From: Owenweeksia hongkongensis DSM 17368
GTDB lineage: Bacteria > Bacteroidota > Bacteroidia > Flavobacteriales > Schleiferiaceae
Length of the DNA: 64,000 nucleotides
Assembly: GCF_000236705.1 (NCBI RefSeq)
Contig: NC_016599.1
Span: 1,240,001-1,304,000, forward strand
Direction of reading: 5' to 3'
Shown here: positions 1 to 62,830 of the stretch, one piece after another
Layout: every line of letters starts with the position of its first letter
Numbering within the stretch: the stretch's first letter is position 1
Program-made: the position numbers and the translations under genes
The notes under the pieces: generated by a model
What the model was told of the DNA's origin: nothing
The model's input: only the letters and a program-made list of their open reading frames with translations
Databases searched by the model: none

Positions 1-2632
1 TTGAATCCAAATATCTAATACCTCCATATTCCCCTTCGTTCAAATACATCTGCATAAGCTTAGCCAAATCATTTGAATTGCTAAAAAGACCTGCATGTCC
101 GGCTACCCCACCAAGCATTGCTGCACCTTGGTCATGCACATAGCCTCGTAATTCTTGTCTTCTAAATAGTTTGTCATTTTCAGTAGGCACAATTCGCTGA
201 GCTGTGAATCTATCCAACGGCTTGTAGCCCATAGTGTAGGCTCCCAAATTGCTATACAACCACTCCTGAGTGTATTCATCCAAAGTTTCCTTTTCCATGT
301 TTTCAATGATTTCCATCAAAAAGTAATAGCCCAAATCACTGTATTTATATTCCTTTTTTGACAAAAGCTTAGAGTCATAAATCCTTTGGTACACCGTGTC
401 ACGAATACTTCGACAACTGTATACTCCATCCGCTACGTTACATGGATAATTAAAATCCCTGTTGCTAGAATAGTATTCAGGTCTCTGATGCTTTTTGTCA
501 TCGAGTGTTTCCAGATAAAATGGGATCCAAGGAGTAAGTCCGGCTTGATGAGCCAATACTTCTCGAATTATTAAAGAGTCTTTGTTTGTGCCTTTTAGCT
601 GTGGTAAATATTTCCCCAGTCTTTCATCCAAATCCAAGCGACCTTCTTCCACCAACTTCATTATTACCGGTAAGGTTGCGGCCATTTTGGTTATGGATGC
701 CAAATCATAAATATCATCATCATTTACGGGCATTTTCTTATCATACGTTTGGTGACCGTATGACCTATCAAAAACCACTTTTCCGTGGCGGGCAACTATT
801 ACCTGGCAACCCGGTGTGGCCTTTTGGGCAATAGCCTCTCTTACTAAAACATCAATTTTATTTAACTCATTTTCGTCCAAATCTACCTGACCTGGAAGAG
901 CATAGCCTAAACGATTCAAGCTTTCGGTATCAAAACCAAAGCCTTCTTCAAACAGCTCTCCAGTGCTCACCGGCAATCTGCCTTGAGCTCCAAGTGCTCC
1001 AAATATTATTTGTGCAGCAACGCTCTCTGCATCAGGGTGATTTTGATAGGCCATTATCAAACCGTCAGCAGCCTCAGCACCGGTAAATGTTCGCAAGCTA
1101 TAAGGATTGGCAAAAACCGTGATAATCGTTTTATTCTGACGAGCTAACCTCTTTACAAAAGCATTAATCTCGGAACTTATTTTGTACGATTTCCAAGGAG
1201 AGGCATTTGAAGTATACACTCCACCAATTACCAAATCATAATTAGAGAGGGAATTTAAAAGCTCATTATCTTTTCCCGGAGAGTAAGTGTACAAATCTAC
1301 GTTTGAATACTTTTTAAGAACTCTGTGAAACTCAGTACCGATGTCAGTTCCGGCCACCACACAAGCTATCTTTTTATCCTTCAACTCCCTAACGGGAATC
1401 AACTTTTGGCGATTAGTTAACACCGTGGTCGCCTTTTCATAAATCTCACGATTGGCTATCATTGATGATTCTGGACTGAGCTCCTTCACAATATTTTTTG
1501 GCTCAATGTATTTTTTCTCCTGAAGCCCCATCCAGCTTTTGGCCATCAGTATCTTGTACACATGCTCATTGATGGCTTCCTCGGTCAAAGTTCCCGCTTT
1601 GAGTGCTTCCTTTATTTTGGCTTTAGCCACAGGCACATCTTGTGCAAAAAGTAAAATATCATTTCCGGCAATCAGTGCCTTGGCATCTACTTCCCCTGGA
1701 GGGTACTTATCAGCCACACCACGCATATTCAATGCATCGGTAAAAACCAAACCATCATATTTCATTTGGTTTCTCAGGTAGTCGCTAATAATTTTTGGCG
1801 AAAGCGAAGATGGCGTGCCGGTGTTATCCATAGCCGGCACATTGAGGTGAGCAACCATAATAGAGCCTACTCCATTTTTTATCAAATCGCTATAAGGAGC
1901 AAGTTCCACACTTTCCAATCTAGCCATGTCATGCCCTACCGTTGGCAAAGTTTTATGCGAATCACTATCCGTATCTCCGTGGCCGGGAAAATGCTTTGCG
2001 CTTGCCAACACATGTTCATCCTGCATCCCCTTCATGTAGGCCGTTCCAAGCTTAGCTACTTTTTCAGGGCTTTCGCCAAATGACCTCGCGTTAATAATCG
2101 GATTATCGGGATTTGTATTTACATCCACCACAGGACCAAAGTTGATATGAACCCCTAATCGCTTGCAATGCTTGGCAATTTCTCTACCCATCGCATAAGC
2201 TGAAGCACTGTCATTTGTTGCTCCTACCGTAAGTGGCCATGGAAATTTAAAGGTAGAATCCAATCGCATGGAAAGCCCCCACTCGGCATCCATAGCAATC
2301 ATAAGTGGTGTAGTAGAAGCTTGCTGATAAATATTGGTAAGGTGCGCCTGACGAACCGGTCCGCCTTGAAAAAATATTAAACCACCAATCTTTTGCTCTT
2401 TGATTAATTTTAAAATTTCTGCTTTGTGAGCCGCTGTTTTATTGGAATAAGCTGCTACCATAAAAAGCTGCCCCAGCTTTTCATCCAGCGACATACTTTC
2501 TAATTTCTGTTTAGCCCAAGCGGTATCTCCCTCATATATAACTGACTGCCCGCGAGCGACAACCATAGAAATTATAAAAAGTAGGGATGTAAACAGTAGT
2601 GTTTTAATTCTTTGCATAGGGTCATTCATCAT
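1..2632 (-). CDS. Glycoside hydrolase family 3 / serine beta-lactamase-like fusion, 3' end cut by window edge
   Basis: Reading the minus strand gives one open frame of about 875 codons with no stop before base 1. It begins with a signal peptide (ATGs at 2632, 2629 and 2617; numbering here uses 2617). The N-terminal half is a NagZ-like GH3 domain: KHFPGHGDTDSDSH at residues 208-221 and FTDALNM carrying the expected Asp nucleophile. The C-terminal part is a class C beta-lactamase/PBP4-like domain with SITK (Ser641 as nucleophile) and YSD in place of the usual YxN. Known GH3 enzymes of this type remove N-acetylglucosamine from glycans such as muropeptides. The second domain is likely an esterase or peptidase. 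The product should be exported, with a role in cell-wall or glycan turnover inferred. It is transcribed divergently from the mutL operon. Confidence 0.88.
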   Translation of the reverse strand, partial: MMNDPMQRIKTLLFTSLLFIISMVVARGQSVIYEGDTAWAKQKLESMSLDEKLGQLFMVAAYSNKTAAHKAEILKLIKEQKIGGLIFFQGGPVRQAHLTNIYQQASTTPLMIAMDAEWGLSMRLDSTFKFPWPLTVGATNDSASAYAMGREIAKHCKRLGVHINFGPVVDVNTNPDNPIINARSFGESPEKVAKLGTAYMKGMQDEHVLASAKHFPGHGDTDSDSHKTLPTVGHDMARLESVELAPYSDLIKNGVGSIMVAHLNVPAMDNTGTPSSLSPKIISDYLRNQMKYDGLVFTDALNMRGVADKYPPGEVDAKALIAGNDILLFAQDVPVAKAKIKEALKAGTLTEEAINEHVYKILMAKSWMGLQEKKYIEPKNIVKELSPESSMIANREIYEKATTVLTNRQKLIPVRELKDKKIACVVAGTDIGTEFHRVLKKYSNVDLYTYSPGKDNELLNSLSNYDLVIGGVYTSNASPWKSYKISSEINAFVKRLARQNKTIITVFANPYSLRTFTGAEAADGLIMAYQNHPDAESVAAQIIFGALGAQGRLPVSTGELFEEGFGFDTESLNRLGYALPGQVDLDENELNKIDVLVREAIAQKATPGCQVIVARHGKVVFDRSYGHQTYDKKMPVNDDDIYDLASITKMAATLPVIMKLVEEGRLDLDERLGKYLPQLKGTNKDSLIIREVLAHQAGLTPWIPFYLETLDDKKHQRPEYYSSNRDFNYPCNVADGVYSCRSIRDTVYQRIYDSKLLSKKEYKYSDLGYYFLMEIIENMEKETLDEYTQEWLYSNLGAYTMGYKPLDRFTAQRIVPTENDKLFRRQELRGYVHDQGAAMLGGVAGHAGLFSNSNDLAKLMQMYLNEGEYGGIRYLDS

Positions 2633-48899: not shown

Positions 48900-48937
48900 A
48901 ACCTCTGTCAAAGTTTCAAGCTTCGGCAGAGGTTTTT
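48900..48937 (+). terminator. Rho-independent terminator after doxX
   Basis: AACCTCTG / CAGAGGTT arms with partial inner pairing, then TTTTTTG. Confidence 0.75.
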
Positions 48938-49070
48938 TGTTTGCCCCTTTTTATTTCTTTTCTAATATCAAATTTCTTCCGCACACCAAAAAGTATACAC
49001 CTTTCGAAAATGTGTATAACACGGTAAGCTGCATCTGCACTCATCTTTGTATCAACAAAATAAAACAGAG

Positions 49071-50024: not shown

Positions 50025-50051
50025 ATTGAGAACCTTTTAACACAGAACATC

Positions 50052-50564: not shown

Positions 50565-50565
50565 G

Positions 50566-51477: not shown

Positions 51478-51512
51478 ATTTCAATGCAACTTTCCCTATT
51501 CATCACTTTTAC

Positions 51513-51537
51513 ATATCGGTAATTATAGATATATTTG
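51513..51537 (+). promoter_or_regulatory. Dyad plus -7 box TATATTTG before the ArsR-type gene
   Basis: ATATC (51513-51517) pairs with GATAT (51529-51533), overlapping TATATTTG (51530-51537), just before the ATG at 51542. It looks like an autoregulatory site. The half-site TAGATAT recurs at 51874-51880. Confidence 0.4.
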
Positions 51538-51541
51538 CATC

Positions 51542-51844
51542 ATGGAAATACGAACTGCTACTGAAATTGGGAAATGTCTTTCAAACCAAACGCGTATGCA
51601 AATATTGGAATGGTTGAAAGAGCCTGAGAAAAACTTCCCACCGCATGAAACGCTAGAGCATTTTAATGATGGAGTTTGTGTAACCTATATTCAGGAAAAG
51701 GCGGGCTTATCGCAGTCTACTATTTCTACTTATTTAACCAATATGGAAAAATGCGGCTTGCTCATTTCCACCCGTCATGGAAAATGGTCGTACCTAAAAC
51801 GGAATGAAGAGGTAATAAAGCAGTTTACGGATTTTATCAGTTAA
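51542..51844 (+). CDS. ArsR-family winged-helix regulator
   Basis: A 100-residue ArsR-fold regulator: TEIGKCLSNQTRMQILEWLKE, then VCVTYIQEKAGLSQSTISTYLTNMEKCGLLISTRHGKWSYLKRNE. There is no obvious CxC metal site in the alpha-3 region; a lone Cys in DGVCVTYI and one in EKCGLL are seen, so the ligand may be redox or a small molecule. It is followed by the CBU_0592-type and SDR genes. Confidence 0.92.
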   Translation: MEIRTATEIGKCLSNQTRMQILEWLKEPEKNFPPHETLEHFNDGVCVTYIQEKAGLSQSTISTYLTNMEKCGLLISTRHGKWSYLKRNEEVIKQFTDFIS

Positions 51845-51862
51845 AAAAATTTACCACAATAC

Positions 51863-51878
51863 ATCTACATATTTAGAT
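51863..51878. promoter_or_regulatory. Second dyad ATCTA-N6-TAGAT
   Basis: ATCTACATATTTAGAT is a nearly perfect palindrome between the ArsR gene and the 51889 gene. It shares TAGATAT with the dyad in front of the ArsR gene, suggesting two operators of the same regulator. Confidence 0.4.
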
Positions 51879-51888
51879 ATTTAATAAT

Positions 51889-52158
51889 ATGAAAGTTTTA
51901 ATCGACATACTTGGATGGACTGGATCGGGATTGATAATTTTAGCTTATGCCCTCACCTTATTAAAAAGCAGCGACTACCTTTCCTACAGCAAGTATTTAA
52001 ATTTATTGGGAGGAATATTAATCGCGATAAATTGCTACTACTATCAGGCCATTCCACCTTTTATTACCAATTTGCTATGGAGCGTGATTGCTACGCTAAC
52101 TATATATAAAACCAGAAGGGCTAAAGCAAAGTGCAGAAAATCTGAATGTTTCACATAA
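51889..52158 (+). CDS. CBU_0592-like small membrane protein
   Basis: An 89-residue protein with three membrane helices: ILGWTGSGLIILAYALTLLKSS, YLNLLGGILIAINCYYY, and FITNLLWSVIATLTIYK. This pattern fits the CBU_0592 family of small membrane proteins; the function is unknown. The C-terminal RAKAKCRKSECFT tail has two Cys. It is 10 bases from the SDR gene. Confidence 0.8.
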   Translation: MKVLIDILGWTGSGLIILAYALTLLKSSDYLSYSKYLNLLGGILIAINCYYYQAIPPFITNLLWSVIATLTIYKTRRAKAKCRKSECFT

Positions 52159-52168
52159 ATAACGCGAT

Positions 52169-52771
52169 ATGAGAATTTTAATAATTGGAGGTAAAGGCAC
52201 AATTGGAAGTGTAGTTACATCACATTTTGAAAAAACGAATGATGTACTAATTGCCGGAAGAACGAGTGGTGATGTAACGGTGGATATTGCCGACTCTAAA
52301 TCCATAAAAGCCATGTTTGAAAAAACGGGAAAGCTTGATGCCTTTATATGTATTGCGGGAGAGGCTAAGTGGGGAGATTTTGATGACTTAACAGAAGAGG
52401 ATTATTACGTGGGGCTAAAAAGCAAGTTGATGGGTCAGGTAAACCTTGTAAGAATTGGTCAAAATTATTTGACGGCAAATGGTTCTATCACCCTATCTAC
52501 GGGTATTTTGGCTGATGATCCAGTTGTAAAGACCACCAGTGCTGCCATGGTAAATGGCGCTATTCACAGTTTTGTAAAAGCTGTAAATCTGGAGATAAAA
52601 AATGGCATTCGTGTAAATGTGGTTTCATCGGGTATGGTGGAAGCGGCTTATGATAAATACAAAGACTACTTCCCTGGGCATAACCCAATCCCCATGACCA
52701 AGGTAGTGAATGCTTATGTTCGCAGTGTAAATGGAAAAGGTAAAGGTGAAATTATAAGAATTTATGATTGA
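52169..52771 (+). CDS. Short SDR-family oxidoreductase
   Basis: A 200-residue Rossmann protein. The nucleotide site is IIGGKGTIGSVV, and the catalytic-like region is TLSTGI with NGAIHSFVKAVN. The typical YxxxK Tyr is not obvious (MVNGAIHSFVK keeps only the Lys), so catalysis may be altered. Similar small SDRs are common in Bacteroidota. It is probably in one unit with the preceding ArsR and CBU_0592-type genes. Confidence 0.87.
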   Translation: MRILIIGGKGTIGSVVTSHFEKTNDVLIAGRTSGDVTVDIADSKSIKAMFEKTGKLDAFICIAGEAKWGDFDDLTEEDYYVGLKSKLMGQVNLVRIGQNYLTANGSITLSTGILADDPVVKTTSAAMVNGAIHSFVKAVNLEIKNGIRVNVVSSGMVEAAYDKYKDYFPGHNPIPMTKVVNAYVRSVNGKGKGEIIRIYD

Positions 52772-52849
52772 TACTTTTCAGCCAAGATAGACGAGCACAG
52801 AGTTTGCTCTGAAAATGAAATCCTTAAACTTCAAGAAATCAATAACCGA

Positions 52850-53698
52850 ATGATTTTAAAAAATCAAAGTTTTACTTACAAGGAAAAAGTGATTATTGAG
52901 AAAGTCGTTTTAAAACCTCCTTACCGTCACGGCCGGGTGTTTCACAACGAAGGTTGCTTTATGTACTTAAAAGGTGCTCAAGGAAAAATGATGTCTTCTG
53001 AAGACAACTACAATTTTAAAGAAGAACCCAAAGAGGCGCTGCTACTAAAATGTGATACTTACTTTTTAGATTTTGTGAAATCCGCCTCAAATGAAGAGGT
53101 TGAAATCATCGCTATTCATCTGTATCCAGATATTTTAAAAGAGTTGTATAGCACCGAGCTTCCCGCTATTATTCAACAAAGTGTGAAGCATCCTCAAACA
53201 AAAAAACTGGCTGACGACACTACAATAACCAGGTTTATAGAGTCACTCGACTTTTATTTTGACAATCCAAATTTGGTGAATGACGACCTCCTTGAATTAA
53301 AAGTTCGCGAATTGATTTTACTATTGGTACAAACCAAAAATGCAAACTCGGTATTAGAGCTCATCCAGGGCTTGTATGATTATAGAAACATTGATCTCAA
53401 AAAAATTGTAAACCTGCATCAGTATAATAACCTCAGCATTGAAGAGCTGGCTGCGCTAGCTAGTGTAAGTGTATCTTCTTTTAAACGTGCATTTAAGAAA
53501 GAGTTTAATGATACGCCTGCACACTATTTCAACGTACAGAAAATTAAAAAAGCCAAAGAGCTTTTATCACTTACCGATATGGCTATTAGTCAAATAGCTT
53601 ATGAAATCGGTTTTAACGACCCGCTTTATTTTACGCGCCTGTTTAAAAAAAGTGAAACCCTTACCCCATCAGAATATCGAAGCAAGAATCACGCCTAG
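52850..53698 (+). CDS. AraC-family transcriptional regulator (second)
   Basis: A 282-residue regulator with a sensor-like N-terminus and a double HTH C-terminus: NLSIEELAALASVSVSSFKRAFKKEFNDTPAHYFNVQKI, then AISQIAYEIGFNDPLYFTRLFKKSETLTPSEYRSK. It sits between an SDR gene upstream and the carboxymuconolactone-type gene downstream; the latter 89 bases away is a likely target. Confidence 0.92.
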   Translation: MILKNQSFTYKEKVIIEKVVLKPPYRHGRVFHNEGCFMYLKGAQGKMMSSEDNYNFKEEPKEALLLKCDTYFLDFVKSASNEEVEIIAIHLYPDILKELYSTELPAIIQQSVKHPQTKKLADDTTITRFIESLDFYFDNPNLVNDDLLELKVRELILLLVQTKNANSVLELIQGLYDYRNIDLKKIVNLHQYNNLSIEELAALASVSVSSFKRAFKKEFNDTPAHYFNVQKIKKAKELLSLTDMAISQIAYEIGFNDPLYFTRLFKKSETLTPSEYRSKNHA

Positions 53699-53787
53699 CC
53701 CCTCCATATACTTGAACTTTTTGTCCATATTCTAGCAGATTAGTTGGCGGAAATTTGTCCTCAGATAATTAATAACAAAGAATAACA

Positions 53788-54351
53788 ATGGACAATTTCA
53801 AAATTCATTCAATAGAATCAGCTCCGGAAAAGAGCAAAGCCCAATTAGTAGAATCGCAAAAAGCATTTGGCATGCTTCCAAATTTGCATGCTGTAATGGC
53901 AGAGTCGCCAGCGGCTCTGGAAGCCTATAAAACCCTTCATAGATTGTTTTCTGAAGAAACGGCTTTTAATGCAGAAGAGCTTACCGTTGTCTGGCAAACT
54001 ATAAACGTAGAAAATGGCTGCCACTATTGCGTACCGGCACACACGGGTATTGCTCATTCTATGAAAGTTGACCCAGCAATTACAGAGGCTTTACGCGATG
54101 AAAAACCTTTGGCTAATGACGAACTAGAAGCATTGCGCACCGCAACACTTAAAGTAATTCGAAACCGTGGTATCCTCAGCGAAAACGATTTAGAAGCATT
54201 TTATAATGCAGGTTATACTAAGCAGCAATTGCTTGAAATTTTCTTGGGCTATTCGCAAAAGATTTTGAGCAACTACACCAACCACGTGGCTAACACGCCA
54301 GTAGATGCTCCTTTTAAAAGCTTTGCTTGGGAAAAAGAAACTGTAGCGTAA
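53788..54351 (+). CDS. AhpD/carboxymuconolactone decarboxylase-like protein
   Basis: A 187-residue all-helical CMD/AhpD-fold protein with ENGCHYCVPAHTGIAHS, the CxxC...H site of AhpD-type disulfide reductases. AhpD-like proteins move electrons to peroxiredoxins and respond to peroxide or electrophile stress. The gene follows an AraC regulator and ends with a hairpin terminator. Confidence 0.9.
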   Translation: MDNFKIHSIESAPEKSKAQLVESQKAFGMLPNLHAVMAESPAALEAYKTLHRLFSEETAFNAEELTVVWQTINVENGCHYCVPAHTGIAHSMKVDPAITEALRDEKPLANDELEALRTATLKVIRNRGILSENDLEAFYNAGYTKQQLLEIFLGYSQKILSNYTNHVANTPVDAPFKSFAWEKETVA

Positions 54352-54401
54352 ATTGTAGAGAAGTCTACTAAAACACCACACAGGTTTGGGGAATATAAAT
54401 T

Positions 54402-54436
54402 GCGCCATCATTCTAAAGAGTGATGGCGCTACTTTT
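54402..54436 (+). terminator. Rho-independent terminator
   Basis: GCGCCATCA / TGATGGCGC perfect 9-base arms with a 10-base loop, then CTACTTTTTAG. Confidence 0.8.
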
Positions 54437-54644
54437 TAGGTTACACCCTCACTATATCCGAGCATCTCAATTGGGCAAATCAATTTAATATCTGTCAAAA
54501 TAATTTTCCCACGTCTTGCATAAATTTGCAAATTAGGCGATTCATTGAAGAGCTTTTACATTTCAGTGGATATTAAAGATCAAGTCCAAAATCACTTCTT
54601 TTAAAATTCCTGCCTTTTTGTAATTGACTATAAAAAGTTTAAAA

Positions 54645-55499
54645 ATGAAAATAGCCGTAACATCCGCCAGTGGGCAATTAGGAGCCGCTATCACCAAGGC
54701 ACTAATCCAAGAAATTGGGAAAGAAAATGTGGTGGCCATTGCGCGCACCACTTCTAAAGCAGAACACTTGGGCGTAGAAGTGCGTAAAGGCGATTATAAC
54801 ATCCGTGAAGATTTTAACGAAGCACTAAAAAGCATTGACAAAGTATTGTTGATTTCAGGCATGGACGATCCGCAAAAACGCATTCCACAACACCGCAATG
54901 TAATAGAAGCCGCTAAGCAAAATGGCGTGCAAAAGATTGTATACACCAGTATTGTGGGCGATGAAGAAAACACGGCTTTCAGCCCCGTGGTGCAGAGCAA
55001 CCGCCAAACCGAAGAAGATGTACGCAACTCTGGTCTGGATTATGTGATTGGCCGTAACGGCATTTACATCGAGCCTGATTTGGAATACATTGACACGTAC
55101 GTGAAAGAAGGCGGCATCATCAACTGTGCAGCAGATGGAAAATGTGGCTACACCAGCCGCGAAGAGTTAGGTTTTGCCTACGCTCAAATGTTGCTCAACG
55201 ACAACTTAAATGGCGAGACGCTAAACTTGGTGGGTGAGCCGATTACGCAAAGTCAATTGGCAGAATACATCAATCAGGTGTATGGAAAGACACTTTCTTT
55301 CAAATCTATTTCTGTAGAAGAATACAAAAAAGAGCGTCAACTGGCCTTGGGCGCTTTTATAGGAACTATCATCGCTGGCATATATGAAGGCATTCGCAAT
55401 GGTGCCAACAATGTACCTTCTGATTTTGAAAAGGCATCAGGCAGAGCGCACAAGGATCCGTTGGAGATGATACGTGAGTTTTACAATGCTAAGGAGTAG
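54645..55499 (+). CDS. NmrA/atypical SDR NAD(P)-binding protein
   Basis: A 284-residue Rossmann protein with VTSASGQLGAAITKAL (GxxGxxG-like) at the start, VLLISGMDDPQKRIPQHRNVIEAAKQNGVQKIVYTSIVGDEE in the middle and the C-terminal DPLEMIREFY. It resembles quinone oxidoreductase QorB (YtfG). Reduction of quinones or similar electrophiles is inferred. The start at 54645 begins the Rossmann strand; TTG 54624 is a weaker choice. Confidence 0.9.
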   Translation: MKIAVTSASGQLGAAITKALIQEIGKENVVAIARTTSKAEHLGVEVRKGDYNIREDFNEALKSIDKVLLISGMDDPQKRIPQHRNVIEAAKQNGVQKIVYTSIVGDEENTAFSPVVQSNRQTEEDVRNSGLDYVIGRNGIYIEPDLEYIDTYVKEGGIINCAADGKCGYTSREELGFAYAQMLLNDNLNGETLNLVGEPITQSQLAEYINQVYGKTLSFKSISVEEYKKERQLALGAFIGTIIAGIYEGIRNGANNVPSDFEKASGRAHKDPLEMIREFYNAKE

Positions 55500-55730
55500 C
55501 CGAGCCAACTTAGATAAAAACAGTCCGTTCAGAAAGGTTTGAACATTTTAAAGCAATTGTGATTAGCAAAGGTTTGCGAAATCTCTAGGGTCTTGGCTTC
55601 TCTAAGCTTTTTGGGTTTGTCCAAAATTCTACATCTTGCTAGTTTCAAACACTTACCTTTCCGTTTACACATAAATAAGGAAAATATACCCATGCTGCAC
55701 CTTATCTAACTAAATATCCTAACAATTTAA

Positions 55731-57683
55731 ATGTACCTAAAAGAATTCTACATTGACAACTTTCGAGGCTATCGAAAATTCAAAATAAAAACAGATAGTA
55801 ATACAAATATACTAACAGGTGTAAATAATAGCGGTAAGACCACAATTCTTGAAGCAATTTCCCTATGGAATGAAATTTTTAGTCACTTAGTTATCCTAGC
55901 ACGAAAGAGAGATCGAAATCTAAATATTTTTTCTGGAGACTATAGGTTTGGTAAAAAAGGACAGAATTATATAGATTATAGAGAAATAAATTCTGTCAGA
56001 AGTTTTGGCTATAAAGATATTTTTTACAACTTAAATAATAGAGCAACTATTAAATTATCAGCAAAGGTATATTTTAACGATACAAATGAAATTGAGATTG
56101 GATTTATTATGAAAGAGGCTAACGGGAATAATTATAATGTTTACTTAGACAACCACGATAACTTTGATTTCCGTTCTTTTAATACACAGTTTAGAAATCC
56201 CCCTCAATGTATTGGGTGTTATTTTTCAACGCCTGTAGCCACAATACCATCGTTTGAAGAATTTGCAATTGCACCAAAAATTAAAGAAGGTATAAAGATT
56301 AGGCAATCTTCTTTATTTTTCAGAAATCGTCTTTTCAATCTATCGAAAGGAGATGACTTCGCAGACTTTAAATCAAATTTGTCCAGGATTCTTTATAATG
56401 AAACAGATTGCATAGATTTCAATATTAAAGGTGATAAATCAAATGACATTTATGTTTCGATTGATATCAACATTAAAAACAGTGGATTAAGAAATATCTC
56501 GTTATTAGGAAGTGGAACAATACAAATTATAGAAATTCTACTTCATCTTTACGAATCAAAAAAAGAACTCAACATTATTTTACTTGATGAGCCTGATAGT
56601 CACATTCATAGAGATATTCAAAAACGATTGCTCAGTTTTTTAAAGCTGAGTGATGTTCAAGTATTTTTAACAACTCATAACGAGTCACTTATTAGAAGCG
56701 CTAATCCAAATAATTTGTTTTTTGTAGATGAAGAAGTTTCATCTACGACCCCAACAATAATTGAAGCAATTGGAAAAATTAAACTACCGCAAAGGAAAAT
56801 AGGGATTGAATCTTCTCATCATTCCAAAATTATTAATCAAATAGGTAGCGAAACCTCTCTAGACATCCTAAATGCACTTGAAGCCGATAAGATAATCTTT
56901 GTTGAGGGAGTTGATGATTCAGAATATATTCAAAAACTCATGGATGTTAAGAGAATAGATAAGGAATGCGTTTTCTGGTCATTTGGCGGTTTAGATAATT
57001 TACTGAGCAAAATAAAACACTATAAAGAATTTTTTGAAAGTTTAGGTTCAAATCAGTCCATTTGGGACAAATGTTCCATCATAATTGATGCAGATTTTAT
57101 GACTGATACACAAAAAGAAAAGCTTAAAAATGAGCTTAAAAATAAGCTCGGCATTTCAGTTTTTATTTGGAAATCATATACAATTGAGGGAACAATACTT
57201 CTGGATGATACAAAATTAGAACAACTTATTACAATGGAATGCTCAAAACAGGCAGTTTCCAAAAACCAATTAGAAATCAAAGGAAGTATCGCTAATGCAA
57301 TAGCTGAGATAAAAACGGAGAAGTTGAGATTATTAAATAATGATGCTGATTTAGGAAGACGAGTAACCGGTCAAATAGAAAGTCGAATTAAAAATTTAGA
57401 TGATAATTTAAACATTCCAAGAAGAAGAGTATATGATAATGTCACTCTTCCCAACTTATTTAATCATTACCGGATCTTTTCTACTCAAGAATTGAACTCT
57501 AACAGAGTATCCCATATTTGCAATAAAGAAGATGTTGAAAAAATACTTGAATCTATCTATGTGGAACTGAGCTTAGTAAAAAACCCAGTATTTATCAATT
57601 ATTTTTCGTCCGTCTTAAATACTGTCGACTTTAGTTCAATAAATAGTGAATGGCAAGAGTTATTGGATTTTATAGGCGAATAA
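55731..57683 (+). CDS. OLD-family-like ATPase with TOPRIM domain; candidate anti-phage nuclease
   Basis: A 650-residue protein. The N-terminal SMC/ABC-like ATPase has GVNNSGKTT (Walker A, 30-38), a GSGTIQ signature, LLDEPDSHIH (Walker B, Asp286, Glu287) and TTHNES. It is followed by a TOPRIM-like domain: FVEGVDDSEY (Glu392, Asp395/396), IIIDADF (Asp453, Asp455) and TIEG (Glu486). The remainder is helical. This is the OLD/GajA-like plan of a DNA-cutting nuclease; a fused PARIS-like protein (DUF4435-type TOPRIM) is the alternative. The gene is visibly more AT-rich than its neighbours and has no adjacent helicase partner. Confidence 0.87.
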   Translation: MYLKEFYIDNFRGYRKFKIKTDSNTNILTGVNNSGKTTILEAISLWNEIFSHLVILARKRDRNLNIFSGDYRFGKKGQNYIDYREINSVRSFGYKDIFYNLNNRATIKLSAKVYFNDTNEIEIGFIMKEANGNNYNVYLDNHDNFDFRSFNTQFRNPPQCIGCYFSTPVATIPSFEEFAIAPKIKEGIKIRQSSLFFRNRLFNLSKGDDFADFKSNLSRILYNETDCIDFNIKGDKSNDIYVSIDINIKNSGLRNISLLGSGTIQIIEILLHLYESKKELNIILLDEPDSHIHRDIQKRLLSFLKLSDVQVFLTTHNESLIRSANPNNLFFVDEEVSSTTPTIIEAIGKIKLPQRKIGIESSHHSKIINQIGSETSLDILNALEADKIIFVEGVDDSEYIQKLMDVKRIDKECVFWSFGGLDNLLSKIKHYKEFFESLGSNQSIWDKCSIIIDADFMTDTQKEKLKNELKNKLGISVFIWKSYTIEGTILLDDTKLEQLITMECSKQAVSKNQLEIKGSIANAIAEIKTEKLRLLNNDADLGRRVTGQIESRIKNLDDNLNIPRRRVYDNVTLPNLFNHYRIFSTQELNSNRVSHICNKEDVEKILESIYVELSLVKNPVFINYFSSVLNTVDFSSINSEWQELLDFIGE

Positions 57684-57754
57684 AAATAACACATGAGAAT
57701 GGATAGACAAAATATGGCAAATTCAAAAATAACATAGGATCTTTACTTAGTCTT

Positions 57755-57780
57755 CAAGTTTTTAAACTTGTTTATAATTT
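57755..57780 (+). terminator. Weak terminator-like hairpin after the OLD-like gene
   Basis: CAAGTT / AACTTG arms with a short loop, followed by TTTATAATTT. A weak stem; other structure possible. Confidence 0.4.
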
Positions 57781-57868
57781 AATGCGAAGAACATTGTTTT
57801 CAATTACATTACTTTTCCTTTTAATCCTACAAAGCAATACACTCCAACCCAAGACAGAACGTTTTATT

Positions 57869-58285
57869 TTAAAAAGAACCAGCCTCCATATAGGACTGCA
57901 AAATAATTGCAGCGCTTACCTTGTCTATCTCCCCTTTTTCGCGTCTCTTCATCTTTTTCATGCCTGAGTCAATCATGCTTTGCATTGCCATTTTTGAAGA
58001 AAAGCGCTCATCCTGAAGTACCACTTTCATTTTAGGAAAAACATTTTGAAGCTTGGTGGTTAGCTTACGTACTCGCTCTGAATTGTCAGAATCACCGCCA
58101 TCCAAATTTTTCGGATCACCTATTACAATGGTTTCATAGCTATCAGTAGCAAATAGTTGCCTCAAATAATCCAACAACTTTGAAGTTTCTACCGTGTCCT
58201 TTGGTGTGGCTATTATTTGCATAGGATCTGTTTCCGCTATGCCTGTTCTTTTACCACCGATGTCTAAAGCTACTATTCTTGCCAA
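57869..58285 (-). CDS. ruvX: YqgF/RuvX Holliday junction resolvase-like protein
   Basis: A 138-residue RNase H-fold protein with VALDIGGKRTGIA (Asp active-site strand), TIVIGDPKNLDGGDSDNSE, VLQDERFSSKMA and the C-terminal DKVSAAIILQSYM, where the last Asp fits the catalytic D. YqgF is involved in rRNA processing and possibly recombination. It runs divergently from dapD. The gene expected after it, def, is 11.6 kb away. Confidence 0.94.
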   Translation of the reverse strand: MARIVALDIGGKRTGIAETDPMQIIATPKDTVETSKLLDYLRQLFATDSYETIVIGDPKNLDGGDSDNSERVRKLTTKLQNVFPKMKVVLQDERFSSKMAMQSMIDSGMKKMKRREKGEIDKVSAAIILQSYMEAGSF

Positions 58286-58294
58286 TGTGTTTCA

Positions 58295-58302
58295 TACTTT
58301 TG
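58295..58302 (+). promoter_or_regulatory. -7 box TACTTTTG for dapD
   Basis: Matches TAnnTTTG on the plus strand, 88 bases before the GTG start of dapD. No convincing -33 element. Confidence 0.4.
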
Positions 58303-58389
58303 CGCGAAGTTAGAGTTTAGAAATTAGACGTGAGATTTTAGACTTTCAACTAATAAACCATTTACAAATTCACATTTACACATTACATC

Positions 58390-59205
58390 GTGAGCGATTT
58401 ACAGCAATTGATAGAGCAAGCTTGGGAAGACAGAAGCATGCTAGAAGACACCAAGGTAGTGGAAGCTATCGAAAGCATTATTGAAGATATTGACAAAGGC
58501 AGATTGAGATGTGCCGAGCCTACCGAAAACGGATGGCAAGTGAATGAATGGGTAAAGAAGGCGGTAATCCTTTATTTCCCAACTCGTAAAATGGAAACTA
58601 TAGAAGCAGGTCCATTGGAGTTTCACGATAAAATTCCATTGAAGACCGGTTACAAAGAACTGGGAATTCGCGTGGTGCCTCACGCTGTAGCGCGTTATGG
58701 AGCGTACATCAGCAAAGGTGTAATTATGATGCCTTCTTATGTAAACATCGGTGCACATGTAGACGAAGGAACTATGGTGGACACTTGGGCTACAGTAGGT
58801 AGCTGTGCCCAAATTGGTAAAAATGTTCACCTGAGTGGTGGTGTGGGTATTGGTGGTGTTTTGGAGCCTGTACAAGCTGCTCCTGTAATCATCGAAGACA
58901 ACTGCTTTATCGGTTCTCGCTGTATAGTTGTAGAAGGTATTCGCTTAGAAACTGAGGCTGTGCTTGGTGCTAATGTGGTGCTTACGGCTTCTACCAAAAT
59001 TATTGATGTAACTGGTGATGAGCCCAAAGAAATCAAAGGATATGTTCCTGCTCGTTCGGTAGTAATTCCAGGAAGCTACACTAAGAAATTCCCAGCTGGT
59101 GATTTTCAAGTGCCATGTGCTTTGATTATTGGTACACGTAAAGAAAGCACCAATAAGAAGACCTCTTTGAACGATGCTTTGAGAGAATACGGAGTGTCAG
59201 TGTAA
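58390..59205 (+). CDS. dapD: 2,3,4,5-tetrahydropyridine-2,6-dicarboxylate N-succinyltransferase
   Basis: A 271-residue DapD of lysine and meso-diaminopimelate synthesis, needed for peptidoglycan. The left-handed beta-helix hexapeptide repeats run from about 100 to 240 (VNIGAHVDEGTMVDTWATVGSCAQIGKNVHLSGGVGIGGVLEP, then IEDNCFIGSRCIVVEGIRL). The start is GTG at 58390, giving MSDLQQLIEQAWEDR, which fits the family; no nearer ATG gives the full N-terminus. Confidence 0.97.
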   Translation: MSDLQQLIEQAWEDRSMLEDTKVVEAIESIIEDIDKGRLRCAEPTENGWQVNEWVKKAVILYFPTRKMETIEAGPLEFHDKIPLKTGYKELGIRVVPHAVARYGAYISKGVIMMPSYVNIGAHVDEGTMVDTWATVGSCAQIGKNVHLSGGVGIGGVLEPVQAAPVIIEDNCFIGSRCIVVEGIRLETEAVLGANVVLTASTKIIDVTGDEPKEIKGYVPARSVVIPGSYTKKFPAGDFQVPCALIIGTRKESTNKKTSLNDALREYGVSV

Positions 59206-59284
59206 GTAATAATAAGGAGTAAGGAATAAGTAGTAGAGACGTATAACCGCTCCCTATTACTTACTCCCCACTCCCTACTCAATA
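59206..59284. repeat. AGTAAGGAGT/ACTCCCTACT repeat pair between convergent genes
   Basis: After the dapD stop: AATAAGGAGTAAGGAATAAG, then about 20 bases, then TTACTCCCCACTCCCTACTC running into the next gene's stop. The right side is the same motif as at 20-21 kb; the two sides are partly complementary. Confidence 0.5.
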
Positions 59285-60036
59285 CTAAGTTCATCCCACG
59301 CCAACTGCATCCCTTTCGGTAAATCTTTACTCACCTCAGCATGAAGTCCAAGTTGGTGGCTAATATGCGTGAAGTAAGCATTTTCCACATCTAGCTCCTT
59401 GGTGAGTTCTATCGCCTCATCCAGCGTAAAATGTGAATGGTGATTCTTTTTACGCAAAGCATTTACAACAAAATGCTTGCTTCCTTTTATCAGGTTCTTT
59501 TCGGTTTCTCCAATATAGTTAGCGTCCGTCACATAAGTGAAATCGCCCATTCTAAATCCTAAAACCGGCAATTGCCCATGCATCACTTTTATAGGTATAA
59601 ATTTGATATCACCTATGGTGAAAGGTGTTTTCATATCAATGGTTTTTAGCACCACCTGTGGCACTCCAGGATAATCACCATTTTGAAAAATATAGGAATA
59701 TTGCTCGCGGAGTCTTTTCTGTACACGCTCGGTGGCATATATCTCCATCGGCTTGTTTTGAATAAAATTAAAAGCTCGAACCTCATCCAAACCAGCAGTA
59801 TGATCCATGTGTTCATGGGTAATAATAATGGCATCCATTTTCATCACTCCTGCCCTTAGCATTTGATACCTAAAATCCGGTCCGGCATCAATGTTTACCG
59901 TGGTATTTTTGCTTTGCACTAATAATGAACTCCTTAGCCTTTTATCTTTTTTATCATCCGAAGTGCACACCTTACACGTACATCCTATTATAGGTATACC
60001 TTGAGAAGTTCCTGATCCAAGAAATGTGAATTTCAT
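59275..60036 (-). CDS. PhnP-like metallo-beta-lactamase fold phosphodiesterase
   Basis: A 253-residue MBL-fold hydrolase with HEHMDH at 74-79. The N-terminus GSGTSQGIPIIGCTCKVC...RLRSS matches the PhnP/cyclic phosphodiesterase group, which has an extra zinc site using early Cys residues. PhnP opens ribosyl 1,2-cyclic phosphate in phosphonate use, but many Bacteroidota copies stand alone, so the reaction is uncertain. It converges with dapD. Confidence 0.92.
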   Translation of the reverse strand: MKFTFLGSGTSQGIPIIGCTCKVCTSDDKKDKRLRSSLLVQSKNTTVNIDAGPDFRYQMLRAGVMKMDAIIITHEHMDHTAGLDEVRAFNFIQNKPMEIYATERVQKRLREQYSYIFQNGDYPGVPQVVLKTIDMKTPFTIGDIKFIPIKVMHGQLPVLGFRMGDFTYVTDANYIGETEKNLIKGSKHFVVNALRKKNHHSHFTLDEAIELTKELDVENAYFTHISHQLGLHAEVSKDLPKGMQLAWDELSIE

Positions 60037-60102
60037 ACAATTGCGTTTAGTAAAAGCGTTTAAAATAATGAGGAAAAAAGGACATTGACCCTATTAAACT
60101 AG

Positions 60103-60110
60103 TAATTTTG
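60103..60110 (+). promoter_or_regulatory. -7 box TAATTTTG for the 60134 gene
   Basis: Matches TAnnTTTG and lies 23 bases before the ATG. A TTGACC about 15 bases upstream is somewhat close for a -33 element. Confidence 0.45.
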
Positions 60111-60133
60111 TACTGCAAACTTAAAATATAGTC

Positions 60134-61591
60134 ATGGAGCGTGTTGTATTGACCACGAGTCAGAAAGCTTTAAAGATAAATCTCAACGAAAACATTTATG
60201 GAACTTTCGCAGAAATAGGTGCCGGGCAAGAAGTTGTGCGTCACTTTTTTAGAGCGGGCGGTGCCTCGGGTACTGTAGCAAAAACCATGAGTGCTTACGA
60301 CAAAGATTTTAGTGATGCCATTTATGGTCGCGAAATAGACGGCCGCTACGTTACAGAGGCGCGCTTGCGCAAAATGCTGGACCATGAATACAGCCTTATT
60401 GAGCAGCGATTGAGCCGTGATAAATTTCCTAACAAGTGCTACTTCACATTTTCAGATACCATTGCCACTATAAACTTTACTAAGAAGTTTAAAGGCCATG
60501 GTTGGATGGGATTGCGTTTTCAATTGGATCCGGATCAAGCTCCAAATGACGTGATCTTTCACGTAAGAATGAAAGAAGAGGAAGCATACCTACAGCAGGA
60601 AACTATCGGTATTATGGGCGTAAACCTGATTTACGGGTGCTTCCATATTCGTAATAATCCTGAGGAATTGCTTCGCTCACTTTACGATAACATCGCAAAG
60701 TATAAGGTGGAAATCGACATGGTTCACTTTGAGGGACCAGAGTTTCAGAGTGTGGATAACCGATTGATGTCACTCCAGTTGATTAAAAACGGAATGACCG
60801 ATGCTGTGATTTTTGGCCCTGAAGGGAAAAACATTTTACCAGCGGCACTGCTTTACAAGAAAAACATACTTGCCCTAAGAGGTAGCTTTAGACCTGCCAC
60901 TAAAGTGAATATTGACATGATCAAAAAAGGCTTTGGCTACTTTGTAGACGAGCGTAAAGTAGATCGTGAAAATATGGTGGTTCTTTTTGAAATCACCTTG
61001 AACAATCTGAAATCTGAAGGTCAGATTGACGAACAAGACTTTTTGGATAGAGCCGAAATACTTTGTTCTCTAGGGCAAACGGTACTTATTTCAAACTACC
61101 AACAGTATTATAAACTGGTAGAATATTTTACCAGATATACTGAAGAGCGTATGGGCCTTATTATGGGGGTTACCAACCTCAGAGAGTTGTTTGATGAAAA
61201 GTACTACCGTGATTTGAAAGGTGGAATTTTGGAAGCTTTTGGTATTCTTTATTCAACAGACCTCAAGCTTTACATTTATCCATCACAAACCACTCCTGAT
61301 GAAGAAGTGGAAACCAGCAAATCGGTTAAAATCCACCCAAGGTTGAAACCTCTTTTTGATTACCTAATGTTCAATCGCAGGATTGTAGACATTGAAAATT
61401 ACGATCCAGAGATTCTTCAAATATTCTCTAGAGATGTGCTTCAACACATTAGAAATGGCGATGGCCAATGGGAAAACGCCTTGCCTGCTTATGTAGATAA
61501 TATTATTCGAGACAAAGAACTTTTTGGCTACAAAGCCGATAGTGAAAAGTCAAAAAAGGATAAAGAGATAGAAGAGAGCGAGGCACAATAG
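60134..61591 (+). CDS. Conserved protein of unknown function (often mislabelled in databases)
   Basis: A 485-residue soluble protein beginning MERVVLTTSQKALKINLNEN, with IYGTFAEIGAGQEVVRHFFRAGGASGTVAKTMSAYDKDFSDAIYG as a strongly conserved-looking segment. I recall the family as widespread in Bacteroidota and cyanobacteria, annotated variously as TonB-dependent receptor or nucleotidyltransferase without support. It has no signal peptide and no membrane segment. GAGQE and GGASGTVAK resemble nucleotide-binding loops but no known motif fits. A C-terminal Lys/Glu tail ends the protein. Confidence 0.88.
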   Translation: MERVVLTTSQKALKINLNENIYGTFAEIGAGQEVVRHFFRAGGASGTVAKTMSAYDKDFSDAIYGREIDGRYVTEARLRKMLDHEYSLIEQRLSRDKFPNKCYFTFSDTIATINFTKKFKGHGWMGLRFQLDPDQAPNDVIFHVRMKEEEAYLQQETIGIMGVNLIYGCFHIRNNPEELLRSLYDNIAKYKVEIDMVHFEGPEFQSVDNRLMSLQLIKNGMTDAVIFGPEGKNILPAALLYKKNILALRGSFRPATKVNIDMIKKGFGYFVDERKVDRENMVVLFEITLNNLKSEGQIDEQDFLDRAEILCSLGQTVLISNYQQYYKLVEYFTRYTEERMGLIMGVTNLRELFDEKYYRDLKGGILEAFGILYSTDLKLYIYPSQTTPDEEVETSKSVKIHPRLKPLFDYLMFNRRIVDIENYDPEILQIFSRDVLQHIRNGDGQWENALPAYVDNIIRDKELFGYKADSEKSKKDKEIEESEAQ

Positions 61592-61613
61592 CGCAGTTCA
61601 TCTTCAAACAAAA

Positions 61614-61650
61614 AAGCCCCGAAATGACTGACATCTCGGGGCTTCTTATT
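61614..61650. terminator. Rho-independent terminator
   Basis: AAGCCCCGAAATG / CATCTCGGGGCTT arms (one mismatch) and a 5-base loop, then CTTATTTT. Serves the 60134 gene and possibly the convergent cysteine desulfurase. Confidence 0.85.
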
Positions 61651-61666
61651 TTATAAGTAATCTTAT

Positions 61667-62830
61667 CTATGCTGGCACTGGTACCATCATATTTTTAAGC
61701 GTTTCTATTACATAATCTAATTCCTCACGGGTATTATTTTTACCGAAAGAAAAACGAATAATGGCACATTGATTATCAGGATCAATAGCCTCAATTACGT
61801 GAGACCCCTTTTGACTGCCACTAGTACAAGCACTTCCACCGCTCACCATTACACCATTCATATCTAATGTAAATAGATACATGCCGTCTTTTGGCAAACA
61901 TGGCAGGCTGCAGCTTAGCACCGTAAGCAAACTTTTATCAAGCTGATCGCTCAATCCATTAAAGCGAACATCTGTAACTTCCGCCTTCAGCTGATCAATC
62001 ATATATTGCTTTAGATCTGTTATGTGTGCGTTTTCCGCTTCCATATTTTCAATAGAAAGTTGGAAAGCTTTGTGCAAGCCAGCAATACCAAGAACATTCT
62101 CCGTACCACCTCTCATATTTCTTTCTTGAGAGCCTCCGCTGATGAATGAGTGACATTTTACGCGATGATTTACGTACATAAATCCTACTCCTTTTGGTCC
62201 GTAGAACTTATGCGCTGAGGCAGCCAAAAAGTCAATTGGTAGCTCACTTAAATCAAGTTCGCAATGTGCCATAGTTTGCACTGTATCCGTATGGAAATAA
62301 GCATTGTGCGCTCGGCACATCGTTCCCACAGTTTTCAAATCAAGTAAGTTTCCTACTTCATTGTTTCCATGCATCAACGAAACTAAAGTTGGAGTACCTT
62401 CTTTAAGAAGCTCTTCAAGGTGATTAAGATCAACCACCCCTTTGTCCAAAAGATTTACAAAGACTAATTCTACACCAAAGTTTTTAGCCAATGCCTCAGC
62501 AGTGTGAAGCACAGCATGGTGTTCCATTTTTGAAGTAATGATTCTCTTAACTCCGCAATCTCTTACTGCTAAAGTAAGGGCCGCGTTATCGGCTTCGGTT
62601 CCACCTGAAGTAAAAACGATTTCATTTCCTGTGCATCCTAAAGTTTTAGAAATATACTTTCTGGCTTCTTCCACCACGCTTTTAGCCTTGCGGCCAAATT
62701 GGTGTGTAGATGATGGATTCCCGAATGGGCCATTCATGACTTCCAGCATATATTGCTTTACTTCTTCCCTGATTGGCGTTGTTGCCGCGTTATCTAAATA
62801 AATCCTCCTCTTACTTTCCAAACCAGTCAT
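61667..62830 (-). CDS. Cysteine desulfurase (NifS/IscS type)
   Basis: A 387-residue PLP enzyme. The PLP Lys208 is in SAHKFYGPKGVGF, and the catalytic Cys335 is in SGGSACTSGS on a long mobile loop, as in IscS/NifS. The N-terminus is YLDNAATTPIREEV. It moves sulfur from cysteine to persulfide for Fe-S clusters or tRNA thiolation. The ATG at 62830 overlaps the upstream aminotransferase gene by 20 bases, so the two are translated together. Confidence 0.95.
   Translation of the reverse strand: MTGLESKRRIYLDNAATTPIREEVKQYMLEVMNGPFGNPSSTHQFGRKAKSVVEEARKYISKTLGCTGNEIVFTSGGTEADNAALTLAVRDCGVKRIITSKMEHHAVLHTAEALAKNFGVELVFVNLLDKGVVDLNHLEELLKEGTPTLVSLMHGNNEVGNLLDLKTVGTMCRAHNAYFHTDTVQTMAHCELDLSELPIDFLAASAHKFYGPKGVGFMYVNHRVKCHSFISGGSQERNMRGGTENVLGIAGLHKAFQLSIENMEAENAHITDLKQYMIDQLKAEVTDVRFNGLSDQLDKSLLTVLSCSLPCLPKDGMYLFTLDMNGVMVSGGSACTSGSQKGSHVIEAIDPDNQCAIIRFSFGKNNTREELDYVIETLKNMMVPVPA

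What the first reader, a model, noticed from the sequence alone, without database searches (positions are those of the whole stretch)
55731..57683. Lone OLD-like ATPase-TOPRIM gene: candidate defence nuclease, possibly a fused PARIS-type protein
Sequence shows an ABC/SMC-type ATPase (Walker A 30-38, Walker B 286-287) joined to a TOPRIM-like domain (Glu392, Asp396, Asp453, Asp455, Glu486). Known families with this plan are OLD nucleases and GajA of Gabija. PARIS uses a similar ATPase plus a DUF4435 TOPRIM protein and exists in fused form. No helicase (GajB) follows. The gene is AT-rich and sits at the end of a regulator-rich block, which suggests acquisition.
Basis: partly seen in the sequence, partly recalled or inferred. 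Interest (0 to 1): 0.65.

Follow-up and report, generated by a model that had tools for sequence, protein, structure and literature searches.

The report
Mobile one-gene ATPase–TOPRIM defence nuclease
This is a single horizontally acquired gene whose protein joins a sensing ATPase to a nuclease domain predicted to resemble the one in the PARIS antiviral system, so it is probably a one-protein phage defence; it belongs to a little-studied branch of a known defence family rather than to a new kind.

Summary
Transfer is well supported: AT-rich, no orthologue in 3 of 3 same-genus genomes, inside a 6.4-kb block missing from G001, and 84% identical to copies in two MAGs whose single tested housekeeping proteins are only 67% and 68% identical to this genome's. 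Shared DNA with those copies is essentially just the ORF. More distant relatives occur at type I R-M, BREX, BREX-related and prophage loci. Likely function: phage defence by abortive infection (inferred).
Type: ATPase plus TOPRIM in one chain, as in OLD proteins, but the C-terminal domain model resembles AriB, the PARIS tRNase (Z 11.5), more than OLD or Gabija TOPRIMs (Z 7.9 or less). Trees put it in its own clade (100/100), apart from two-gene PARIS and from AriAB fusions. 'Fused PARIS' is not met as membership: no DUF4435 hit, partial and lower AriAB score, separate clade. Best reading: a standalone OLD-family variant that works like PARIS in one polypeptide; tRNA as target is inference. The same genome carries a two-gene PARIS elsewhere.

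The parts
55731..57683 (+). standalone ATPase-TOPRIM gene, 650 aa (P0001)
   Evidence: DNA homology to L002, L003 and L004 starts at or within 1 nt of the ATG
55731..56780 (+). N-terminal ABC/SMC-type ATPase domain, about residues 1-350
   Evidence: Pfam AAA_21/AAA_15; structural alignment to a PtuA chain Z 18.3, SMC and Rad50 heads Z 15.6-17.4, AriA Z 15.9
55818..55841 (+). Walker A, residues 30-37 GVNNSGKT
   Evidence: K36 kept in all 44 aligned rows, G30-x4-GK[ST] in 8 of 8 clade rows
56574..56594 (+). Walker B, residues 282-288 IILLDEP (D286, E287)
   Evidence: D286 and E287 kept in 8 of 8 clade rows
56880..57200 (+). TOPRIM core, residues 384-490, with E392, D396, D453, D455, Y483, E486
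   Evidence: DUF3226 match; all six residues kept in 7 of 8 clade rows; domain model closest to AriB
57201..57680 (+). C-terminal helical region, residues 491-650, within the range aligned to AriB; residues 501-650 are the fastest-evolving part
   Evidence: model mdba8829f7b2f, 8ux9_A aligned over model 1..275; dN 0.248 against 0.081 (1-350) and 0.055 (351-500) versus L002
51476..57867 (.). 6.4-kb block present here and absent from G001, ending next to ruvX
   Evidence: blastn of window against L032: 47315-51475 and 57868-63999 are 26 nt apart in G001
57869..58285 (-). ruvX, right-hand neighbour (not part of the system)
   Evidence: Pfam RuvX 116.7 bits

Best explanation
A horizontally mobile, single-gene anti-phage system. 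The N-terminal SMC/Rad50-like ATPase dimerises or oligomerises and senses a phage-induced event, most likely a phage protein that inhibits a host restriction or repair machine. It then releases or activates the AriB-like TOPRIM domain in the same chain. The two-metal TOPRIM site cuts nucleic acid, most likely host tRNA, stops translation and aborts infection. In effect it does in one polypeptide what AriA and AriB do as two. Shown here: architecture, intact motifs, purifying selection, lateral transfer with only the ORF shared, and defence-locus association of some distant relatives. Inferred: defence role of this copy, trigger, oligomer, RNA target, abortive outcome.
For: Architecture: full-length model's first Foldseek matches are Thermus OLD (E 2.6e-12) and GajA (5.3e-12). 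C-terminal model (pLDDT 74, pTM 0.71) matches AriB 8ux9_A at Z 11.5, rmsd 4.4, 217 aligned, and 8v46_D at Z 10.7, ahead of PH0156 8.4, B. pseudomallei OLD 7.9, Eco8 7.7 and GajA 6.3. Motifs kept in 7 of 8 clade rows. Lateral transfer: 84% protein identity to L002 and L003 against 67% for GreA of L002 and 68% for FabI of L003 versus this genome (one protein each); homologous DNA limited to the ORF and up to 17 nt beyond; empty site in G001. Defence or prophage loci of clade members: Picosynechococcus plasmid copy between an SNF2-type helicase and genes annotated DUF1156 and DUF499, resembling the Type-1 BREX-related components in what I read of PMC12839542; G015 copy in the same stretch as HsdM, HsdS and HsdR; prophage copy between a tail-fibre assembly gene and the sheath gene. 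Related but outside the clade: Nostoc copy between pglX and pglZ, Methylobacter copy after type I R and SprT genes. tRNA cleavage is known for AriB (passages of PMC12409363) and reported for P2 Old (stated in PMC13261556 and PMC13096335; Govande 2025 itself not held).
Against: No functional data. The window copy, L002, L003 and G373 lie among genes in which I recognised no defence gene when reading the ORF lists (only the window neighbours were profile-scanned). Foldseek alone gives no match at E <= 0.001 for the C-terminal model, with AriB at E 0.13-0.20, and the model rests on 5 sequences. The full-length model is weak (pLDDT 65.6) and its TM-scores to Thermus OLD are only 0.30/0.36. By HMM-HMM the TOPRIM is about equally close to OLD (94.3%, 75 columns) and AriB (91.5%, 104 columns). 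G677, inside the clade, lacks E392 and D396. YbjD, a Class 1 OLD, shows anti-phage effects without its TOPRIM domain (PMC13261556), and retron Eco8 and GajA are reported to cut DNA (abstract starts), so RNA cleavage is not assured.
Confidence: 0.6

Rival explanations
1. A Class 1-like OLD DNA nuclease: the same ATPase-TOPRIM chain nicks or degrades phage DNA, as reported for Vibrio cholerae OLD (title only seen, in a reference list) and for Gabija and Eco8 effectors, rather than tRNA.
For: Full-length model's first matches are Thermus OLD and GajA, with Eco8 at rank 8 after SMC and PtuA chains. Standalone gene as in Class 1. Relatives beside restriction and BREX genes; PMC12839542 groups TOPRIM/OLD proteins among suicidal endoDNase backups.
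Against: C-terminal domain model closer to AriB than to any OLD TOPRIM listed; Pfam OLD-like_TOPRIM below cut-off in the 4 of 6 members where it is listed, and not listed in the other 2; does not group with P2 Old or YbjD.
Confidence: 0.25
2. A bona fide fused PARIS (AriAB) that profiles merely score badly.
For: Top PADLOC hit is AriAB, 90.3 bits; AriB-like C-terminal fold; Y-x-[ILF]-E motif shared with 5 of 8 PARIS/AriAB rows. L114, which groups with PARIS, scores only 104.8 bits on the same profile, and the Nostoc relative, which does not, scores 110.6, so the score alone does not decide.
Against: No DUF4435 hit up to E=1; 1 of 8 clade members above 80 bits on PDLC02981, against 217.8 and 172.1 for L111 and L112; fused L094 scores 466 bits on the other AriAB profile, PDLC02982; two-gene PARIS and both fusion types form one clade (8 rows, 92.5/92) that excludes the window clade (100/100).
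Confidence: 0.08
3. A vertically inherited or host-function gene (repair or cell cycle, like archaeal Cran1).
For: OLD-family proteins can have non-defence roles (Cran1, passages of PMC12796447).
Against: Only 3 of 395 genomes sampled in the order, this one included, match at E <= 1e-30 with the family profile; absent at the syntenic site in G001; gene more alike between lineages than the GreA and FabI tested.
Confidence: 0.04
4. A selfish or mobile-element maintenance gene (toxin-like nuclease carried for its own spread) with no net phage defence.
For: Appears as a lone ORF between unrelated genes.
Against: No antitoxin-like partner shares DNA with it in L002 or L003 within the 400 nt on each side that were compared; distant members are embedded in R-M and BREX loci.
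Confidence: 0.05

Closest known systems
PARIS (AriA + AriB, including single-gene AriAB fusions; 'Class 4 OLD')
   Same: ABC ATPase plus TOPRIM effector; C-terminal domain model closest to AriB; Y-x-[ILF]-E motif
   Different: One gene; no DUF4435 match; ATPase nearer PtuA than AriA by Z (18.3 against 15.9); outside the clade of two-gene PARIS and AriAB fusions
Class 1 OLD proteins (P2 Old, Thermus OLD, YbjD)
   Same: Standalone gene, N-terminal ATPase and C-terminal TOPRIM; Thermus OLD is the first full-length Foldseek match
   Different: Below the OLD-like_TOPRIM cut-off; does not group with P2 Old or YbjD
TOPRIM-linked OLD-ABC 'backup effectors' of BREX and BREX-related systems (PMC12839542)
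   Same: A clade member lies in a helicase/DUF1156/DUF499 cluster
   Different: Window copy stands alone; I recognised no BREX gene when reading the ORFs listed for 34-64 kb, 8 of whose proteins were scanned with Pfam
DUF3226 (PF11536) proteins such as PH0156 (2p62; that PH0156 is a DUF3226 protein is recalled)
   Same: TOPRIM region 387-490 matches at 28.7 bits; 2p62 Z 8.4
   Different: Pfam gives DUF3226 as a 208-position domain of unknown function; here it is joined to an ATPase; the other 5 members scanned stay below its cut-off

Membership tests
PARIS / fused AriAB | ATPase matching AAA_15 or AAA_21 (Rousset 2022 thresholds 32 and 27 bits) | tested here: met
   55.5 and 67.7 bits; thresholds from passages of PMC9122126
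PARIS / fused AriAB | DUF4435 (PF14491) domain over 27 bits | tested here: not met
   Not listed for P0001 up to E=1; of 6 members only G015 shows it, at 15.8 bits
PARIS / fused AriAB | Match to a fused AriAB profile | tested here: inconclusive
   90.3 bits over 243-527 only; 1 of 8 clade members above 80 bits; fusions of that type 217.8, 172.1 and 104.8 bits. Whether PDLC02981 is the profile to which Rousset's 80-bit threshold applies was not verified
PARIS / fused AriAB | AriB-like fold of the nuclease domain | tested here: met
   8ux9_A Z 11.5, rmsd 4.4, 217 residues; next non-AriB row Z 8.4; low-depth model, Foldseek E 0.13-0.20
PARIS / fused AriAB | Groups with AriA-AriB and AriAB fusions in a tree | tested here: not met
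   Window clade of 8 rows 99.8/100 (44 rows) and 100/100 (47 rows); 4 two-gene PARIS plus 4 fusions together 92.5/92. TOPRIM-only tree unresolved
PARIS / fused AriAB | Activated by Ocr-type proteins and cleaves tRNA | not testable with these tools
   Needs experiment
OLD Class 1 | Standalone gene with no helicase, RT or separate TOPRIM gene | tested here: met
   Neighbours; DNA shared with L002 and L003 limited to the ORF and up to 17 nt beyond, within 400-nt flanks
OLD Class 1 | N-terminal ABC ATPase and C-terminal TOPRIM with two-metal acidic residues | tested here: met
OLD Class 1 | OLD-like_TOPRIM (PF20469) over cut-off | tested here: not met
   13.9 bits against 23.2
OLD Class 1 | Groups with P2 Old or YbjD | tested here: not met
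   the 26 sampled OLD rows hold together only weakly (76.8/46) in the 44-row tree and not in the others
Gabija (OLD Class 2) | Adjacent UvrD-like helicase GajB | tested here: not met
   Next gene is ruvX on the opposite strand; previous gene NmrA-like
Retron-linked OLD (Class 3) | Adjacent reverse transcriptase and ncRNA | tested here: not met
   No RT among the 8 neighbouring proteins scanned with Pfam, two of which matched no family; no Rfam match at 50-60 kb; shared DNA ends at the ORF

The most novel reading that the evidence does not exclude
This clade is a distinct OLD class: a PARIS-like guard in one polypeptide, with an AriB-type tRNase fixed in cis to a PtuA/Rad50-like sensor ATPase, spreading as a single gene and recruited repeatedly beside restriction and BREX genes to kill the cell when a phage disables them.
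Probability: 0.3. Interest if true: 0.55.

Novelty: new variant of a known kind. Interest (0 to 1): 0.42.

Why it matters
[quoted passage not shown] A lone gene with an AriB-like effector in cis, apparently moving as one ORF, makes both testable with a one-gene clone. It also warns that profile-based 'fused PARIS' calls near an 80-bit cut-off could flip between 84%-identical proteins (90.3 against 79.0 bits).

Tried and rejected
Gabija and retron membership were rejected for lack of partners. An accessory ncRNA or second gene was looked for by DNA comparison of the gene and 400 nt on each side with L002, L003 and L004 and by Rfam; none found. Promoter scan gave 14 sites against 11.8 +/- 3.7 expected, uninformative. 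Repeats at the block edges: none convincing. P0001 alone found no relative in viral contigs or phages; profile scans of viral contigs gave 10 loci and 7 loci of which 5 were repeats. Scans with the L049 protein found only itself and its near-identical copy, with the G015 protein nothing. L049 DNA gave no match in E. coli genomes in either mode, nor its protein in phages. The TOPRIM-only tree (113 columns) does not resolve PARIS or OLD. The VIA list for the full-length model shows no OLD or GajA row among its 50; the ATPase fills that list, so this says little.

Rows left out. OLD rows of the trees: 17 of the 25 loci (L071, L073, L078, L081, L082, L085, L086 and L088 dropped by hand: short, near-duplicate, or frame or motif not cleanly found), 3 loci (L043, L046, L047 dropped; L042 is the window gene), 4 viral loci (L050-L053 and L058 dropped), YbjD and P2 Old: 26 in all. 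The weak hits L006-L016 were not used. L003 was left out because its gene is frameshifted, L113 because its longest frame runs on at the N-terminus. L109 and L110 were not used. Plasmid neighbourhoods were read for 6 of the 12 distinct records matched; Cupriavidus, Nitrosomonas, Paraburkholderia, Burkholderia, Streptomyces and Corynebacterium were not opened. The output list of each PADLOC scan with over 25 families is capped at 25.
Full report
What is there. The frame at 55731-57683 (+) is intact and 650 aa long. Searched with its own protein, the 4.0-Mb genome G000 gives one match, the gene itself. Pfam finds an ABC/SMC-type ATPase (AAA_21 67.7 bits, AAA_15 55.5 bits) and a DUF3226 match at 387-490 (28.7 bits, cut-off 27); OLD-like_TOPRIM stays below its cut-off and DUF4435 is not listed. 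Of the 6 members scanned only the window protein passes the DUF3226 cut-off. G677, the eighth, keeps the ATPase, D-x-D and E486 positions but not E392 or D396. Substitution rates against L002 (dN/dS about 0.06, dS saturated) show purifying selection on ATPase and TOPRIM core, with residues 501-650 evolving faster.

Fold. The full-length model is moderate (pLDDT 65.6, pTM 0.49, 9 rows). Its first Foldseek matches are Thermus OLD (E 2.6e-12, but TM-scores only 0.30/0.36) and GajA (5.3e-12), then SMC and PtuA chains, with retron Eco8 at rank 8. VIA-align puts residues 1-378 on PtuA (Z 18.3, rmsd 3.7, 271 aligned), SMC and Rad50 heads, and AriA (Z 15.9). The C-terminal domain predicted alone is better (pLDDT 74, pTM 0.71, 5 rows). 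Foldseek alone is weak (no match at E <= 0.001; AriB chains at E 0.13 and 0.20), but VIA-align ranks AriB first: 8ux9_A Z 11.5, rmsd 4.4, 217 residues; 8v46_D Z 10.7; then PH0156 8.4, B. pseudomallei OLD 7.9, Eco8 7.7, GajA 6.3. The lead over the next non-AriB row exceeds the tie margin of 1, and the aligned range is model 1..275 of 276.

Sequence relationship. HMM-HMM comparison of the TOPRIM region is a tie: OLD 94.3% over 75 columns, AriB 91.5% over 104 columns. The Y-x-[ILF]-E motif at Y483-E486 is present in 7 of 8 clade rows and 0 of 26 OLD rows of one alignment, and in 5 of 8 PARIS or AriAB rows. The maximum-likelihood tree of 44 rows and 503 columns gives the clade {window, L002, L004, G373, Picosynechococcus, G015, prophage L049, G677} 99.8/100 (SH-aLRT/UFBoot), a wider group of 13 rows with the R-M- and BREX-associated plasmid proteins 96/99, and PARIS (four two-gene, one fused) 90.4/95; P2 Old and YbjD lie with the other OLD rows (76.8/46). 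With three better AriAB matches added (47 rows, 500 columns) the clade has 100/100, and the four two-gene PARIS plus four fusions form a group of 8 at 92.5/92 that excludes it. On the ATPase alone the clade has 98.7/100 and PARIS 84.9/78; on the TOPRIM alone the clade without G677 has 93.1/94, but PARIS and OLD are unresolved. All these branches are long and the alignment is hard, so depth beyond the clade should be read with care.

PARIS call. PADLOC's best hit is AriAB (PDLC02981, 90.3 bits), but only for residues 243-527. Clade relatives score 79.0 (L002), 70.9 (L004), 77.2 (G373), 49.1 (Picosynechococcus), 71.9 (G015), 66.6 (L049) and 53.1 (G677). Thus 1 of 8 would pass an 80-bit cut-off such as that given for AAA_15+DUF4435 fusions in PMC9122126 (passages); that PDLC02981 is that profile was not checked. 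Controls: the fusions L111, L112 and L114 score 217.8, 172.1 and 104.8 on it, and L094 from G216 scores 466 bits on PDLC02982 but 62.8 on PDLC02981. Against a simple reading of the score, the Nostoc relative outside PARIS reaches 110.6. G000 itself also carries a two-gene PARIS at 944.2-946.4 kb (AriB 79.6 bits) and an OLD protein near the contig end (PADLOC Old 120 bits).

Mobility. The gene has GC 30.2% against 39.5% for the window; in 7 of 7 relatives measured the gene is lower in GC than its flanks, though only slightly in G015 (37.0 against 38.7%). A search of 99 related genomes found E <= 0.001 matches in 11, G000 itself included; apart from G000 the only strong one was G015 at 28% identity (E 1.5e-28), and of the 3 other same-genus genomes G001 shows only a weak ATPase match and G002 and G003 none. 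In the phylum 2 of 395 genomes matched at E <= 1e-25 and in the order 3 of 395 with the family profile at E <= 1e-30, G000 included in both; these samples overlap. L002 and L003, MAGs titled Flavobacterium sp. and uncultured Saccharospirillaceae bacterium, carry 84%-identical copies, while GreA of L002 and FabI of L003 are 67% and 68% identical to those of G000. With 400 nt of window flank on each side, DNA homology with L002 runs from the ATG to 3 nt past the stop, with L003 from 1 nt before the ATG to 17 nt past the stop, and with L004 from the ATG over the first 1458 nt. So one ORF is the shared unit. In G001 (RuvX 98% identical) the window stretches 47315-51475 and 57868-63999 lie 26 nt apart, so 51476-57867 is missing there. 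In five further genomes that I fetched out of the 57 with a RuvX match (G002, G003, G017, G043, G056) the alignments that end at about 46.25 kb (deformylase) and begin at about 57.9 kb (ruvX) are 21 to 85 nt apart, which argues for gain here rather than loss there. Whether the gene came with the rest of the block or separately is not resolved.

Neighbourhoods of relatives. No defence gene recognised beside the window gene, L002, L003 (only 1 kb known on its right) and G373, judged by reading ORF lists; L004 lies on a short contig and G677 in a stretch with no defence gene that I recognised. In defence or prophage context within the clade: Picosynechococcus plasmid, between a helicase with a NO VEIN domain and genes annotated DUF1156, followed by DUF499 (Pfam confirms DUF499 but gives no family for the DUF1156-annotated protein); G015, in one stretch with HsdM, HsdS and HsdR and followed by a PD-(D/E)XK protein; L049, in what looks by gene order like a P2-type prophage, between a tail-fibre assembly gene and the sheath gene. 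So 3 of 8 clade members have such a context. Outside the clade but related: Nostoc between pglX and pglZ of BREX-1, Methylobacter after type I R and SprT genes, Rhizobium near a cytosine methyltransferase and Vsr genes; Emticicia and Croceicoccus copies lie near transposases. These plasmid loci are 6, the Picosynechococcus one included, of 12 matched records.

Mechanism. Established for PARIS: AriA sequesters AriB and releases it on sensing phage proteins such as Ocr, and AriB cuts tRNA (PMC12409363, passages). Reported for P2 Old: activation on RecBC inhibition and tRNA cleavage (PMC13261556, first of two parts of the text; PMC13096335, passages; PMC12904381, passages; the Govande 2025 paper is not held). 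Against a universal RNA target: YbjD's effect does not need its TOPRIM, and Eco8 and GajA are reported to cut DNA (abstract starts). From these I take a cis-acting ATPase sensor with an AriB-like nuclease, tRNA as the more likely target, at moderate confidence.

Novelty. PMC12796447 (passages) reports at least 11 uncharacterised OLD clades, and PMC12839542 (passages and part 1 of 2 of one section) describes TOPRIM-linked OLD-ABC proteins in BREX and related loci. This clade probably falls within such unstudied diversity; I could not match it to a named clade. Three literature searches listed 3, 12 and 10 papers (of 3, 13 and 8,700 found); in the titles and abstract starts I saw none on a standalone protein with an AriB-like TOPRIM. 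That is a thin search of a partial library. I rate it a new variant of a known kind.

Noticed in passing
G000:C1 944.2-946.4 kb (L089 6210-8400, +): Two-gene PARIS: 446-aa AriA-type ATPase followed by 282-aa DUF4435 AriB. The genome thus has a second, different ATPase-plus-TOPRIM system.
   Followed up: partly
G000:C1 3998.2-4000.1 kb (L090 8213-10051, -): A third such protein, 612 aa with an OLD-like TOPRIM (PADLOC Old 120 bits), next to uncharacterised large genes that may form a further defence locus.
   Followed up: no
window 46274-57868: The site between def and ruvX has grown in this lineage: the two are nearly adjacent in 5 other genomes fetched, about 5 kb apart in G001 and 11.6 kb here.
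   Followed up: partly
L003 10001-11954: This 84%-identical copy is split by a frameshift in a MAG contig, possibly an assembly error; the MAG is titled Saccharospirillaceae, yet its FabI is 68% identical to that of this genome, so contig or bin may be mislabelled.
   Followed up: no
L049 5038-6939: Relative in what looks like a P2-type prophage, between the tail-fibre assembly and sheath genes, a position where P2-like phages are known (recalled) to carry variable genes.
   Followed up: partly
L108 6986-8863 (Nostoc plasmid): A related ATPase-TOPRIM gene sits inside a BREX-1 operon between pglX and pglZ; it scores 110.6 bits on PADLOC AriAB, more than the window protein, yet does not group with PARIS.
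   Followed up: partly
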